64,000 nt of DNA, from the NCBI RefSeq assembly GCF_010894455.1, contig NZ_JAAIXY010000002.1, positions 248,001 to 312,000 on the forward strand, read 5' to 3'. Source of the DNA: Myxococcus eversor (GTDB lineage Bacteria > Myxococcota > Myxococcia > Myxococcales > Myxococcaceae). Positions 26,542 through 30,335 of the stretch are shown piece by piece; the first letter of the stretch is position 1; each line of letters starts with the position of its first letter. Below the pieces are notes generated by a model. It made no database searches. It was not told the DNA's origin and was given only the letters and a program-made list of their open reading frames with translations. Both the position numbers and the translations under genes were made by a program.

Positions 26542-27027
26542 CTACAGGCGCGGTGGCGGGCGGGTGATTCCGAAGAGCTCTTCCCGCTCCAGTGTGATGG
26601 CCAGTCGGCTCAAGCGCAGCGAGGCCAGCGCGAGCACCGCCACCGCTCCCAGCAACAACACGCCGAGGGCGAAGGACACCACCGGCAACGGCTCCGGAAT
26701 GTCGAGCTGACGCTTCGTCAGATACAGCAACGACGTCACCACGAACGCCAAGAGCGCCGTGTACGTGAGCGCGATGGCCCTCGCGAGGATGGCGTGCCGC
26801 CGGTCCAGGATGACCACCTCCTGCCGCAACAAGTCCCGCCGCGAGCTCCCATCCGGCAACTGCCGCGCCTCCCTCAACATCTCCCGCATCCGCGTCGTCA
26901 TCCGCGCAATCTGGTTGTCCAACCCCGTCGCCACGATTCCGCACGCCGACACCATCACCGCCGGCGTCACCGCCGTCCCAATCAGCCGTATCGACGAGAG
27001 GTCCAACCCATCCGACACACCGTTCAT
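26542..27027 (-). CDS. DUF2721 membrane protein
   Basis: The 161-residue protein has an N-terminal membrane helix (LIGTAVTPAVMVSACGIVATG), a cytosolic helical hairpin with NQIARMTTRMREML, and two further membrane helices (LTYTALLAFVVTSLLYL and VVSFALGVLLLGAVAVLALA). This is the DUF2721 layout; function unknown. ATG 27027 was chosen because the sequence upstream is the operator region of the divergent MerR gene. Confidence 0.88.
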   Translation of the reverse strand: MNGVSDGLDLSSIRLIGTAVTPAVMVSACGIVATGLDNQIARMTTRMREMLREARQLPDGSSRRDLLRQEVVILDRRHAILARAIALTYTALLAFVVTSLLYLTKRQLDIPEPLPVVSFALGVLLLGAVAVLALASLRLSRLAITLEREELFGITRPPPRL

Positions 27028-27108
27028 CCCTCCTCTGTTCCACCCCTCCCCTCCCCCTTGCAACCCACCCCTCGGCCCCCTGCCCTTCCCCGAACTCGAC
27101 AGTTCATC

Positions 27109-27221
27109 TCGACACTCGAACCAGACAGTACGACACCGACCCACCCCGGCATGTCGACACCACCCCCGCATAAACTCGACACTGATGACTTGACACCAAA
27201 AGTGTCGAGTCGTACTGTCTG
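27109..27221. promoter_or_regulatory. Operator region with 13-bp inverted repeat and TCGACAC heptamers
   Basis: CAGACAGTACGAC at 27122-27134 is matched inversely by GTCGTACTGTCTG at 27209-27221. The heptamer TCGACAC occurs at 27109-27115, 27154-27160 and 27176-27182 and inverted at 27202-27208. The region lies between the divergent DUF2721 and MerR genes and overlaps the MerR promoter -10, so it is a likely MerR binding region. Confidence 0.7.
27190..27218 (+). promoter_or_regulatory. Promoter of MerR operon
   Basis: TTGACA at 27190-27195 and TACTGT at 27213-27218 are separated by exactly 17 bp. A transcript starting 7 or 8 bp later would begin at the GTG start codon (27226), giving a leaderless mRNA. 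Confidence 0.7.
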
Positions 27222-27225
27222 AATC

Positions 27226-27723
27226 GTGAACACGCGGAAGACACAGAGTGAGTGGAAGCTGGCGGAGCTGGCCGAGGAGGCGGGCGTCTCGCCACGCACG
27301 GTGCGCTACTACGTCCAGCGGGGTCTGCTCCCCGCGCCGCCCTTCCGGGGCCCGGACACCGTGTATGGCGAGGAGCACGTCGTCCGTCTCAAGGCCATCC
27401 GGGTCCTCCAGGCCCGGTTCCTCCCCTTGGATGCCATCCAGGCGGAGCTCCTGCGCCTGTCGCTCGACGAGCTGCGCAAGCTCGCCGAGTCGGACGTCAC
27501 CCCGACTCCGCCCACGTACGGGCCGACGAGTCCCAGCGGTTCACAAATCGTGGCACCGCCGGCCACCGGCCCGCGTCCCACGACGACGACTCGCTACCAG
27601 CGCTGGGAGCTCATCCCCGGACTGGAGCTGCACGTAGCCGATTCAGCGGATGCCAAGGTCAAAGCCCTCGCCGAGCGCGTGAGGGCCCTCATCGAAGAGT
27701 TCCAGGACAAGGAGAAGCCATGA
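27226..27723 (+). CDS. MerR family transcriptional regulator
   Basis: The 165-residue protein has an N-terminal MerR winged helix (ELAEEAGVSPRTVRYYVQRG, VYGEEHVVRLKAIRVLQ), a short Pro/Thr-rich linker and a C-terminal helix (AKVKALAERVRALIEEFQ) for dimerisation. No cysteine metal site is seen, so the signal is not a metal of the classic kind. The GTG start has no ribosome site and coincides with the predicted transcript start. It overlaps the VIT/vWA gene by 4 bp, so it probably regulates its own operon through the upstream repeats. Confidence 0.9.
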   Translation: MNTRKTQSEWKLAELAEEAGVSPRTVRYYVQRGLLPAPPFRGPDTVYGEEHVVRLKAIRVLQARFLPLDAIQAELLRLSLDELRKLAESDVTPTPPTYGPTSPSGSQIVAPPATGPRPTTTTRYQRWELIPGLELHVADSADAKVKALAERVRALIEEFQDKEKP

Positions 27724-30335
27724 CGAAAGAGCATGCAGGGCTGTTCACTCGCGAGGGCGCGCAGGTCCCCCTCCAGGGCGTCGAAGTCACTGGTGAGCTG
27801 CTCGGCGGACATGCGCGCGTGCGCGTTCGCCAGCGCTACCTCAACGACTCGCAGCGCCCCATCGAGGCCGTCTACACCTTCCCCCTGCCGTCCGATGGCA
27901 CCCTGTCCGCCTTCTCCATGACGTGCGCGGGCCGCCGCGTCGAGGGCATCGTCAAGGAGCGCGAGGAGGCCTTCCGCGCCTATGACGACGCCGTCACCGC
28001 GGGCCATGGCGCCGCCCTGCTCGATGAGGAGCGCTCCAACGTCTTCACCGCCCAGGTGGGCAACCTCCTCCCCAACGAGGAGACAATCATCGAGGTGGAG
28101 TTCCTCCAGGCCGTCACCGCCGAGGAGGGCAGCGTCCGGTGGATGCTCCCCACGCTCGTCGCCCCGCGCTACATCCCCGGCAACGCCGCCGGTGACCGCA
28201 CCGGCCACGGCAGCGCCGAGCCCACGTCGCGCGTCCCCGACGCGGACCGCATCTCTCCTCCCATCGGACAGGTGCACTACGGCCTGCGCATGGACCTGCT
28301 CGTGGACCTGGGCCGCGAGGTCATCGTCGAGAGCCCCTCGCACGCCATCACCGTCACCCGCGAGAGCGGCACCCGCGCCCGGGTGAGCTTCTCTCGCGGC
28401 GAGGTGTCCCTGGACCGCGACCTGGTCCTCTCCCTGCGCAGCTCCGATTCGAGCGCCGTCTTCACCCCGCTCGCCACGCACCGCAAGGGCGACAAGCCCG
28501 GCACGTTCGCCCTCACCGTGGTGCCCGACCTGCTGGGCATGGCCTCCGCGCCCCCCAAGCAGGAGGTCATCTTCCTGGTGGACGTCTCCGGCTCCATGGA
28601 CGGCGAGAGCCTGCCCCAGGCCCAGGCCGCGCTCCGGCTGTGTCTGCGCCACCTGCGTGAAGGCGACCGCTTCAACGTCATCGCCTTCGAGAGTTCCTTC
28701 CGCTCCTTCCAGCCCCTGCCCGTTCCCTTCACCCAGCGCATGCTGGAAGAGGCGGACCGGTGGGTGGCCGCGCTCCGGGCCGATGGCGGCACCGAGCTGC
28801 TCGGGCCCATGCAGGCCGCGGCTCGCACCGCGCCGGACGGCGTGCTCGTGCTCTTGACGGACGGACAGGTGGGCAACGAGGAGGAGATCCTCCGCGCCGT
28901 GCTCGCCGAGCGGAAGTCCGCGCGCGTGTACTCGTTCGGCATCGGCACCAACGTCAGCGACGCGCTGCTGCGTGACATGGCGAAGCAGACCGGCGGCGAC
29001 GTGGAGTTCATCCACCCGGGAGAGCGCATCGACGACAAGGTCGTCGCCCAGTTCTCCCGCGCGCTCGCGCCTCGCGTCACTGAGTTGCAGGTCACCTTCG
29101 AGGGCATCGAAGGCACGGAGCTGGCTCCCGCCGAGCTGCCGACGATGGTCGACGGTGTTCCCTGGACGCTGCTGGGCCGCTACCCCACGCCGGGCACGGG
29201 CAAGGTGACGCTGCGGGGCCGCTCCGGCCGTGAGCCCTTCGCGCTCACGGTGAATGTGAACTTCCTCGCCGAGTCGGACCGTCCCGCGGTGGAGAAGTTG
29301 TGGGCCGCCGAGCGCATCAAGAGCTGGGAGGCCGCGGGCCTCACCGGCCGCCGCGCCGAGTCGATGAAGAAGCGCATCGTCGACCTCGCCGTCGAGCACC
29401 AGATTGTCACGCGCTATACGTCCTTCGTCGTGGTGGAGGAGCGCACCGGTGACAGGCGCGCCTCGGGGCAGCCGGAGACGCGCGTCGTCCCGGTGAATGC
29501 TCCCGCGGGCTGGGCCATGTTCGGCACGCAGAAGAACGAAGAGGCCGAGGCCGCTCCCGTCGTCCAGCGCCCCGGTGCTCGTCGCCGTGGCGGGCCGCAG
29601 CAGCCGGTCATGCCGGCTCCCGGAGCGCCGATGCGAATCCCGGCTCCGGCGCCCATGGCCGCCGCGCCCTCCATGGCTTCCGCGGGTGGGCCCCCGCCGC
29701 CCCCCGCGCCGCTCGAGGACTCCGCTCCGAGCTTCGAGAGCCGGAGGATGGTCAGCAAATCGTCCCAGGCCCCCGACATGGCGAAGAAGAAGGGCGGCGG
29801 CCTGCTGGGCGCCATCTTCGGCGGAGCCTCTCGGAAGGAGAAGGACTCCCTGGCGGCTCCCGAGTTCTACGACGACGACGCCCCCGGGGACGGCATGGCC
29901 CTCGAGCAGGAGGAGAGCACCCTGGAGCGCTCCCGTGACGTCGCTTCCCACGGAGCGGGCGCGGAGGCGCTGCTGGGACGACAGCTCGCCAACGGGCTGT
30001 GGGCGGGGACCGGCTCCGGGCCGGAGCCCGTGCAGCAGGCTCGAGCCACCGCGCTCGCGCTGCTGGAGCTGCTGCGCGAGGGCATCACCAGCAGCCACGC
30101 GCTGCACGGCGCCCAGGTGAAGAAGGCGGTGGAGGCCCTGCTGACACTCGCCTCGCAGCTCACCGGCAGCCCCGACGTCGCGGAGCTGGCCCTGGGCGTG
30201 GCCTGGCTCGTCGCGGCGGGCCCGCGCACCCGCGGTCGCATCGAGCAGGCAGCCAAGCCCCTCGCCGGACTCAACGGCCGACTGGGCAACGACGCCGAGC
30301 TGCGTCAGCACGTCGATACGCTCGCCGCTCGCTGA
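27720..30335 (+). CDS. VIT and vWA domain protein
   Basis: The 871-residue protein has an N-terminal VIT domain (about 1-130; VRQRYLNDSQRPIEAVYTFP), a linker, a von Willebrand A domain (about 282-450) with MIDAS motif FLVDVSGSMDGES and the later DGGTEL and LLTDGQ, then a Pro/Ala-rich linker and a C-terminal helical region (EALLGRQLANGLWAG). No signal peptide is visible. VIT-vWA proteins of animals (inter-alpha-trypsin inhibitor) bind matrix; bacterial ones are unexplained. It overlaps the MerR gene (ATGA), so expression is MerR-controlled. Confidence 0.9.
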   Translation: MTKEHAGLFTREGAQVPLQGVEVTGELLGGHARVRVRQRYLNDSQRPIEAVYTFPLPSDGTLSAFSMTCAGRRVEGIVKEREEAFRAYDDAVTAGHGAALLDEERSNVFTAQVGNLLPNEETIIEVEFLQAVTAEEGSVRWMLPTLVAPRYIPGNAAGDRTGHGSAEPTSRVPDADRISPPIGQVHYGLRMDLLVDLGREVIVESPSHAITVTRESGTRARVSFSRGEVSLDRDLVLSLRSSDSSAVFTPLATHRKGDKPGTFALTVVPDLLGMASAPPKQEVIFLVDVSGSMDGESLPQAQAALRLCLRHLREGDRFNVIAFESSFRSFQPLPVPFTQRMLEEADRWVAALRADGGTELLGPMQAAARTAPDGVLVLLTDGQVGNEEEILRAVLAERKSARVYSFGIGTNVSDALLRDMAKQTGGDVEFIHPGERIDDKVVAQFSRALAPRVTELQVTFEGIEGTELAPAELPTMVDGVPWTLLGRYPTPGTGKVTLRGRSGREPFALTVNVNFLAESDRPAVEKLWAAERIKSWEAAGLTGRRAESMKKRIVDLAVEHQIVTRYTSFVVVEERTGDRRASGQPETRVVPVNAPAGWAMFGTQKNEEAEAAPVVQRPGARRRGGPQQPVMPAPGAPMRIPAPAPMAAAPSMASAGGPPPPPAPLEDSAPSFESRRMVSKSSQAPDMAKKKGGGLLGAIFGGASRKEKDSLAAPEFYDDDAPGDGMALEQEESTLERSRDVASHGAGAEALLGRQLANGLWAGTGSGPEPVQQARATALALLELLREGITSSHALHGAQVKKAVEALLTLASQLTGSPDVAELALGVAWLVAAGPRTRGRIEQAAKPLAGLNGRLGNDAELRQHVDTLAAR

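What the first reader, a model, noticed from the sequence alone, without database searches (positions are those of the whole stretch)
27109..27226. Leaderless MerR promoter buried in a symmetric operator array
Seen: TTGACA-17 bp-TACTGT puts the transcript start at the GTG start codon. A perfect 13-bp inverted repeat (27122-27134 and 27209-27221) and four TCGACAC heptamers surround it; one arm covers the -10. Established: MerR proteins bind dyads in their own promoters, normally inside a long spacer. Inference: autoregulation by looping between two sites 87 bp apart with control of the divergent DUF2721 gene.
Basis: partly seen in the sequence, partly recalled or inferred. Interest (0 to 1): 0.58.

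Follow-up and report, generated by a model that had tools for sequence, protein, structure and literature searches.

The report
Leaderless self-regulated MerR promoter in myxobacteria
A myxobacterial regulator gene seems to be read from a promoter that starts right at its start codon and doubles as a binding site for the regulator itself, an arrangement shared by related species, whereas the perfect 13-letter mirror repeat that first drew the eye is private to this one.

Summary
The letters are as described. TTGACA-17-TACTGT ends 7 nt before the merR GTG, the 13-bp arms are exact, and four TCGACAC heptamers are present. Comparison splits these features. The promoter holds: TTGACA-17-TA[C/G/T][T/A]GT, 6-7 nt, then ATG/GTG in 61 of 62 orthologues, with no Shine-Dalgarno core in 61 of 61. 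'Leaderless' is well supported, though no transcript was measured. The 13-bp repeat does not hold: it is perfect in 1 of 56 species and absent from the nearest relative. The conserved operator is another dyad, GACA-N7-TGTC (27192-27206). Its left arm is the -35 box; conserved half-sites flank it upstream and on the -10. Further N7 dyads lie upstream in 24 of 26 same-genus genomes, not in the window. Promoter and dyad persist where the divergent DUF2721 is truncated or missing. Best reading: autorepression of a merR-VIT/VWA operon from an optimally spaced promoter, working like GlnR, HspR and CarA. Looping between the 13-bp arms and DUF2721 control are not supported. Binding, the sign of regulation and the signal are inferred.

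The parts
27190..27195 (+). -35 element TTGACA, also the left arm of the conserved dyad
   Evidence: present with the same spacing in 61 of 62 orthologues
27213..27218 (+). -10 element TACTGT; overlaps the outer half-site TACTGTC and the right 13-bp arm
   Evidence: TACTGT in 56 of 61 loci, TAGTGT 2, TACAGT 2, TATTGT 1
27226..27228 (+). GTG start codon and predicted transcript start (leaderless)
   Evidence: inferred: -10-to-start distance 7 nt in 59 of 61 and 6 nt in 2; no Shine-Dalgarno core in 61 of 61. The 5' end was not measured
27189..27209 (.). O1: main operator dyad CTTGACA-N7-TGTCGAG (core GACA-N7-TGTC 27192-27206)
   Evidence: core scores 7 or 8 of 8 in 61 of 61 loci; exact 21-bp form only here in the window's genome
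27178..27184 (.). upstream outer half-site GACACTG (conserved core CA[C/G]TG 27180-27184)
   Evidence: column counts in 38 non-redundant loci
27213..27219 (.). downstream outer half-site TACTGTC on the -10
   Evidence: column counts in 38 non-redundant loci; roughly mirror of 27180-27184 about 27198.5
27095..27160 (.). upstream half-site cluster: GACA at 27098, 27111, 27124, 27132, 27156 and TGTC at 27152. The stretch holds an N7 dyad in 24 of 26 same-genus genomes but not in the window
   Evidence: exact but private to this species: 1 of 56
27209..27221 (.). right arm of the 13-bp inverted repeat, covering the -10
27226..27723 (+). merR-type regulator, 165 aa (wHTH, proline-rich linker, small C-terminal hairpin and helix)
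   Evidence: Pfam MerR_1 E 3.5e-16; model mean pLDDT 71.9, pTM 0.47
27720..30335 (+). VIT/VWA protein, start overlaps the merR stop (ATGA)
   Evidence: Pfam VIT 2.9e-31, VWA_3 2e-21; match downstream in 61 of 61 loci
26542..27027 (-). divergent DUF2721 gene with its own Shine-Dalgarno; not needed for the operator
   Evidence: Pfam DUF2721 2.5e-20

Best explanation
27178-27226 is an autoregulated, leaderless sigma-70-type promoter of a two-gene operon, merR then a VIT/VWA gene. A MerR dimer binds the dyad CTTGACA-N7-TGTCGAG, one arm of which is the -35 box. The outer half-sites (upstream and on the -10), and looser half-sites further up, take on more MerR cooperatively. Bound MerR covers -35 and -10 and keeps RNA polymerase off, so the operon is held down until an unknown signal, sensed by the C-terminal part of MerR or through the VIT/VWA partner, releases it. 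The mRNA begins at or within about 1 nt of the GTG. Shown here by comparison: conservation of promoter, spacing and dyad, no Shine-Dalgarno, constant gene pair. Inferred: that MerR binds, that it represses rather than activates, cooperativity, and the signal.
For: Promoter with 6-7 nt to the start codon in 61 of 62 orthologues; start codon varies between GTG and ATG while the distance stays. No Shine-Dalgarno core in 61 of 61 merR starts; a core of 4-6 nt in 41 of 41 scorable VWA starts. GACA-N7-TGTC at -34 scores 7-8 of 8 in 61 of 61 while its spacer varies. The same N7 geometry recurs upstream: 27 of 34 sequences against 1.6 in shuffles; between -87 and -120 in 24 of 26 same-genus genomes; at -68 in 12 of 13 Corallococcus-type genomes. 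TTGACA-N7-TGTC sits upstream of a merR-VWA pair in a distant MAG too. The full composite site occurs exactly once in the genome, at this gene. Known repressors of this superfamily use N7 dyads at normally spaced promoters (passages: PMC6191146, PMC6102357).
Against: No transcript start, binding or expression was measured. TACTGT is a weak -10 (3 of 6). One orthologue (G127/L090) lacks promoter and dyad. In the distant MAG the hexamer at 17 bp is CATCGT, a poor -10, although an ATG lies at the same 36 nt (by eye). The window and its nearest relative lack the upstream N7 dyad, and so do the listed loci outside the Myxococcus and Corallococcus-type genera at one mismatch, so cooperativity from it is not general. 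Related species share history, so counts overstate independence. Activation cannot be excluded from sequence.
Confidence: 0.65

Rival explanations
1. One reading: MerR on the two 13-bp arms loops the 87 bp between them, so controlling merR and the divergent DUF2721 gene.
For: The arms are exact; 0 of 3000 intergenic resamples hold such a repeat. One arm covers the -10 and contains the conserved half-site TACTGTC. A second dyad upstream is common in the genus.
Against: The repeat is private: 1 of 56. Distances to the second dyad vary from 53 to 86 bp without evident phase. Promoter and dyad persist without an intact DUF2721 in 7 loci.
Confidence: 0.08
2. MerR activates its own promoter, in the classical way (DNA distortion) or by recruiting polymerase from the upstream sites.
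For: Classical MerR proteins bind dyads in the promoter spacer (established; restated in PMC9938897 passages). The -10 is weak, which could call for help; upstream sites are frequent.
Against: The spacer is 17 bp in 61 of 61 and no better -10 lies at 18-21 bp, so distortion is not needed. The dyad uses the -35 itself as an arm, where a bound dimer should block polymerase.
Confidence: 0.17
3. The array is a target of another regulator with TnnACA half-sites, such as CarA or CarH.
For: CarH repeats carry TnnACA, and CarA/CarH occur in these bacteria (PMC9304148, passages and section 8).
Against: CarH sites are 11-bp tandem direct repeats; here the conserved unit is an N7 inverted dyad. The composite is found once in the genome, at this gene, and the dyad goes with the merR-VWA pair into a distant MAG.
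Confidence: 0.08

Closest known systems
Bacillus GlnR at the glnRA promoter (passages of PMC6191146)
   Same: MerR-superfamily wHTH with a flexible C-terminal part; 17-bp inverted repeat with N7; normally spaced promoter; two sites, one overlapping the -35 and one just upstream, cooperative, both needed for full repression of its own operon
   Different: Arms are TGTNA-N7-TNACA, the opposite orientation of ACA/TGT; the signal comes through glutamine synthetase; no leaderless mRNA is mentioned in the passages read
HspR and its HAIR site (passages of PMC6102357)
   Same: CTTGAGT-N7-ACTCAAG has the same layout as CTTGACA-N7-TGTCGAG, the first five letters included; the proposed model is a central dimer plus cooperative flanking dimers
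   Different: Regulates chaperone genes; the HspR profile scores 19.2 bits here against a cut-off of 105
Myxobacterial CarA/CarH at P crt (passages and section 8 of PMC9304148)
   Same: MerR-type repressors of the same bacteria; TnnACA half-sites; operator overlapping the -35; CarA binds as two cooperative dimers
   Different: CarH uses 11-bp direct repeats; large B12-type sensor domain (recalled), absent from this 165-aa protein; different target genes
CvkR, MerR-type repressor of type V-K CAST systems (passages of PMC9938897)
   Same: Small MerR-type repressor translated from a leaderless mRNA; one target promoter has a 17-nt spacer; its structure 7xn2 is among the fold matches (rank 17, E 4.7e-3)
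   Different: Site AnnACATnATGTnnT, without N7; CAST targets

Membership tests
MerR superfamily | N-terminal MerR-type winged HTH | tested here: met
   PF13411 59.5 bits against a cut-off of 21.6; PF00376 40 against 28.2
Classical MerR activators (MerR, CueR, SoxR, CadR) | Score above the curated family cut-off | tested here: not met
   best NCBIfam match CadR-PbrR 32.3 bits against 151.45
Classical MerR activators (MerR, CueR, SoxR, CadR) | Dyad in an over-long (19-20 bp, recalled) promoter spacer | tested here: not met
   17 bp in 61 of 61 loci; no -10 at 18-21 bp
HspR | Score above the family cut-off | tested here: not met
   19.2 bits against 105
Autorepressing N7-dyad type (GlnR, HspR as working analogy) | N7 inverted dyad overlapping the -35 of its own promoter | tested here: met
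   61 of 61 loci with the promoter
Autorepressing N7-dyad type (GlnR, HspR as working analogy) | Protein binds the dyad and represses | not testable with these tools
   needs gel shift and reporter tests
Leaderless genes | Transcript 5' end at the start codon | tested here: inconclusive
   comparative support only: conserved distance and no Shine-Dalgarno; a Cappable-seq set for M. xanthus exists (PMC8844925, passages) but could not be reached

The most novel reading that the evidence does not exclude
A previously undescribed MerR subfamily, tied to a VIT/VWA protein in every orthologue with this promoter, uses one composite element in which -35, -10 and start codon are locked to a nested four-half-site operator on a leaderless mRNA. 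Auxiliary upstream dyads are free to move, vanish or be replaced by private repeats such as the 13-bp one here. The VIT/VWA protein would be the signal input that releases the repressor.
Probability: 0.25. Interest if true: 0.52.

Novelty: new member of a known kind. Interest (0 to 1): 0.36.

Why it matters
It gives a testable, strongly conserved operator for a regulator of unknown role paired with a VIT/VWA protein in myxobacteria. It also separates the operator that selection keeps (the N7 dyad on the -35) from an eye-catching perfect repeat found in one species. The fixed -10-to-start distance over 61 genomes makes it a clean case for studying leaderless expression in a Gram-negative group, where leaderless mRNAs are called rather rare (PMC9938897, passage).

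Tried and rejected
Long-spacer reading: no acceptable -10 at 18-21 bp. Helical phasing: vector length 0.11 over 14 distinct distances at 10.5 bp, 0.36 over all 26 dyads. Regulon: the composite pattern with up to 3 mismatches gave 3 places per strand, equal to the reversed-pattern control, and the only exact one is this site. CTYGACA-N7-TGTCRAG with up to 1 mismatch gave 8, 10, 14, 8 and 8 places in G000, G004, G003, G013 and G021 against controls of 18, 14, 13, 18 and 7: below the control in three genomes and one above it in two. G021 has a second exact place, not followed up; G004's own operator has 1 mismatch. One 1-mismatch place in G003 (L105) was read and, by eye, has no matching -10. A DUF2721 promoter was looked for by eye on the minus strand; none was convincing. 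Print: MerR + VIT domain + von Willebrand gave two unrelated papers; any three of Myxococcus, MerR family, VWA domain and vault protein inter-alpha-trypsin gave none. Both searches cover the held open-access library only.

Dropped rows and biases: of the 30 genomes matched, G051 and G056 (HTH-only matches) were left out as non-orthologues. The 38 sequences had been picked by an exact promoter pattern, which forces the columns inside that pattern; therefore account for all 62 genomes. L047 and L052 (6-nt distance) failed the pattern. In one search L092 was read on the wrong strand; it is counted. One search used 34 of the 38 sequences (those with 60 nt or more upstream); one search used 56 of 61 (100 nt or more).

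Full report
What was claimed.

Observation. Letters and coordinates are right. The repeat is the only one of its kind in the window. Whole-window resamples hold 0.55 on average, but 0 of 3000 resamples of the intergenic stretch hold one. GACA/TGTC half-sites are enriched upstream in the window (6 against 1.3).

Setting. The closest named orthologue is from Myxococcus qinghaiensis, 96% identical. The gene is a 165-aa MerR-type regulator followed, with a 4-nt overlap, by a VIT/VWA protein; a DUF2721 gene diverges. The MerR is in 26 of 27 same-genus genomes, the window's own included, in 62 of 147 genomes of the class, and, with a distant homologue as query, in 62 of 195 genomes of the phylum, every listed match in the same family. 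One more distant merR-VWA pair lies in a Deltaproteobacteria MAG, L059. A VWA match lies downstream in 61 of 61 orthologous loci with the promoter.

Leaderless promoter. I examined the 62 class genomes that have the gene. In 61, TTGACA, 17 bp and TA[C/G/T][T/A]GT are followed after 7 nt (59) or 6 nt (2) by ATG or GTG. The exception is G127/L090. None of the 61 merR starts has a Shine-Dalgarno core of 4 nt or more; all 41 VWA starts that could be scored have one. A fixed distance from -10 to start, kept while the start codon changes, is what a leaderless gene should show. It is not a measurement of the transcript.

Which operator is conserved. GACA-N7-TGTC at -34 scores 7 or 8 of 8 in 61 of 61, while its spacer varies. 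Flanking it are CA[C/G]TG at -46 to -42 and the -10 TACTGT(C). The -10 is TACTGT in 56 of 61, more uniform than a -10 needs to be, which suggests that it is also a half-site (inference). The inner pair is centred at 27199, the outer pair at 27198.5. TTGACA is at once the -35 and the left arm of the dyad.

More sites upstream. Between -165 and -52 an N7 dyad with at most one mismatch occurs in 27 of 34 non-redundant sequences against 1.6 in shuffles; the next most frequent gap, N12, has 15. In the window's genus such a dyad lies between -87 and -120 in 24 of 26 genomes; in the Corallococcus-type genus it lies at exactly -68 in 12 of 13. The window and its nearest relative L002 lack it: the left half is kept, the right half is changed (alignment). 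Loci of the remaining genera show none at one mismatch. The window has direct half-sites 13 bp apart at 27098, 27111 and 27124 instead.

The 13-bp repeat. Scoring each species' own right arm against its upstream stretch gives 13/13 in the window only; the other 55 of 56 score 11 (1), 10 (2), 9 (4), 8 (19), 7 (25) or 6 (4). The repeat is private: a recent product of mutation in a half-site-rich stretch, or a species-specific gain; I cannot tell which.

Looping and DUF2721. Distal dyads of the genus lie 53 to 86 bp from O1, with one further dyad at 120. Vector length at 10.5 bp is 0.11 over distinct distances and 0.36 over all 26, the latter carried by a cluster at 80-86. DUF2721 has lost its N-terminus in L019, L020 and L025 and is not found within about 1.15 kb in L084, L086, L087 and L089. 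All seven keep promoter and O1, and the first three keep the distal dyad at -117. Six further loci have too little upstream sequence to judge. MerR may still touch DUF2721, but that gene does not explain the operator.

Mechanism. A dyad that uses the -35 of a 17-bp-spaced promoter as an arm is where repressors of this superfamily sit: GlnR at glnRA (two sites, one on the -35, cooperative; PMC6191146, passages), HspR on CTTGAGT-N7-ACTCAAG with flanking dimers (PMC6102357, passages), CarA as two dimers at P crt (PMC9304148). The model of the protein shows a wHTH, a poorly predicted linker and a small C-terminal hairpin and helix (mean pLDDT 71.9, pTM 0.47). Its best fold matches are MerR-family proteins, none at E of 0.001 or better. 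I take autorepression with cooperative flanking sites as most likely. Binding, sign and signal are inferred.

Reach. The composite site occurs exactly once in the genome. Strict dyads fall below the reversed-pattern control in three of five genomes and are one above it in two. This looks like a local autoregulator.

Against this reading. No experiment was possible; the -10 is weak; one orthologue lacks the element; the distant MAG keeps TTGACA-N7-TGTC and, by eye, an ATG at the same 36 nt, but not a good -10; the species are related, so counts are not independent.

Verdict. Promoter and leaderless reading supported; the operator was misassigned to the private 13-bp arms; looping and DUF2721 control not supported. 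A new member of a known kind.

Noticed in passing
L019, L020, L025; L084, L086, L087, L089: The divergent DUF2721 gene has lost its N-terminus in three same-genus genomes and is not found upstream in four genomes of genus g32.
   Followed up: partly
L090 (G127:C183): The most divergent family member keeps the merR-VWA pair but has neither the promoter nor the dyad.
   Followed up: partly
L059:5940-5985: A Deltaproteobacteria MAG keeps TTGACA-N7-TGTC upstream of its merR-VWA pair, with a different divergent gene.
   Followed up: partly
window 27595-27711 (MerR residues 124-162): Small conserved C-terminal hairpin and helix (RYQRWEL.PGLELHV) after a proline-rich linker, a possible sensor or partner-binding part.
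   Followed up: no
window 27720-30335: The VIT/VWA protein resembles TIGR03788, sortase target protein (398 bits), but falls below its cut-off of 551.65.
   Followed up: no
L045 (BNCN01000008.1): The record is titled Comamonas sp. KCTC 72670, but its contig has the length of G024:C8 (496,824), a genome of the window's own genus: probably a misnamed record.
   Followed up: no
L092 (G110:C228): The HTH motif is found on both strands near this contig end, which looks like an inverted duplication or assembly artefact.
   Followed up: no
G021:C1:7092997-7093017: A second exact CTYGACA-N7-TGTCRAG dyad in one relative, a possible further target or chance.
   Followed up: no
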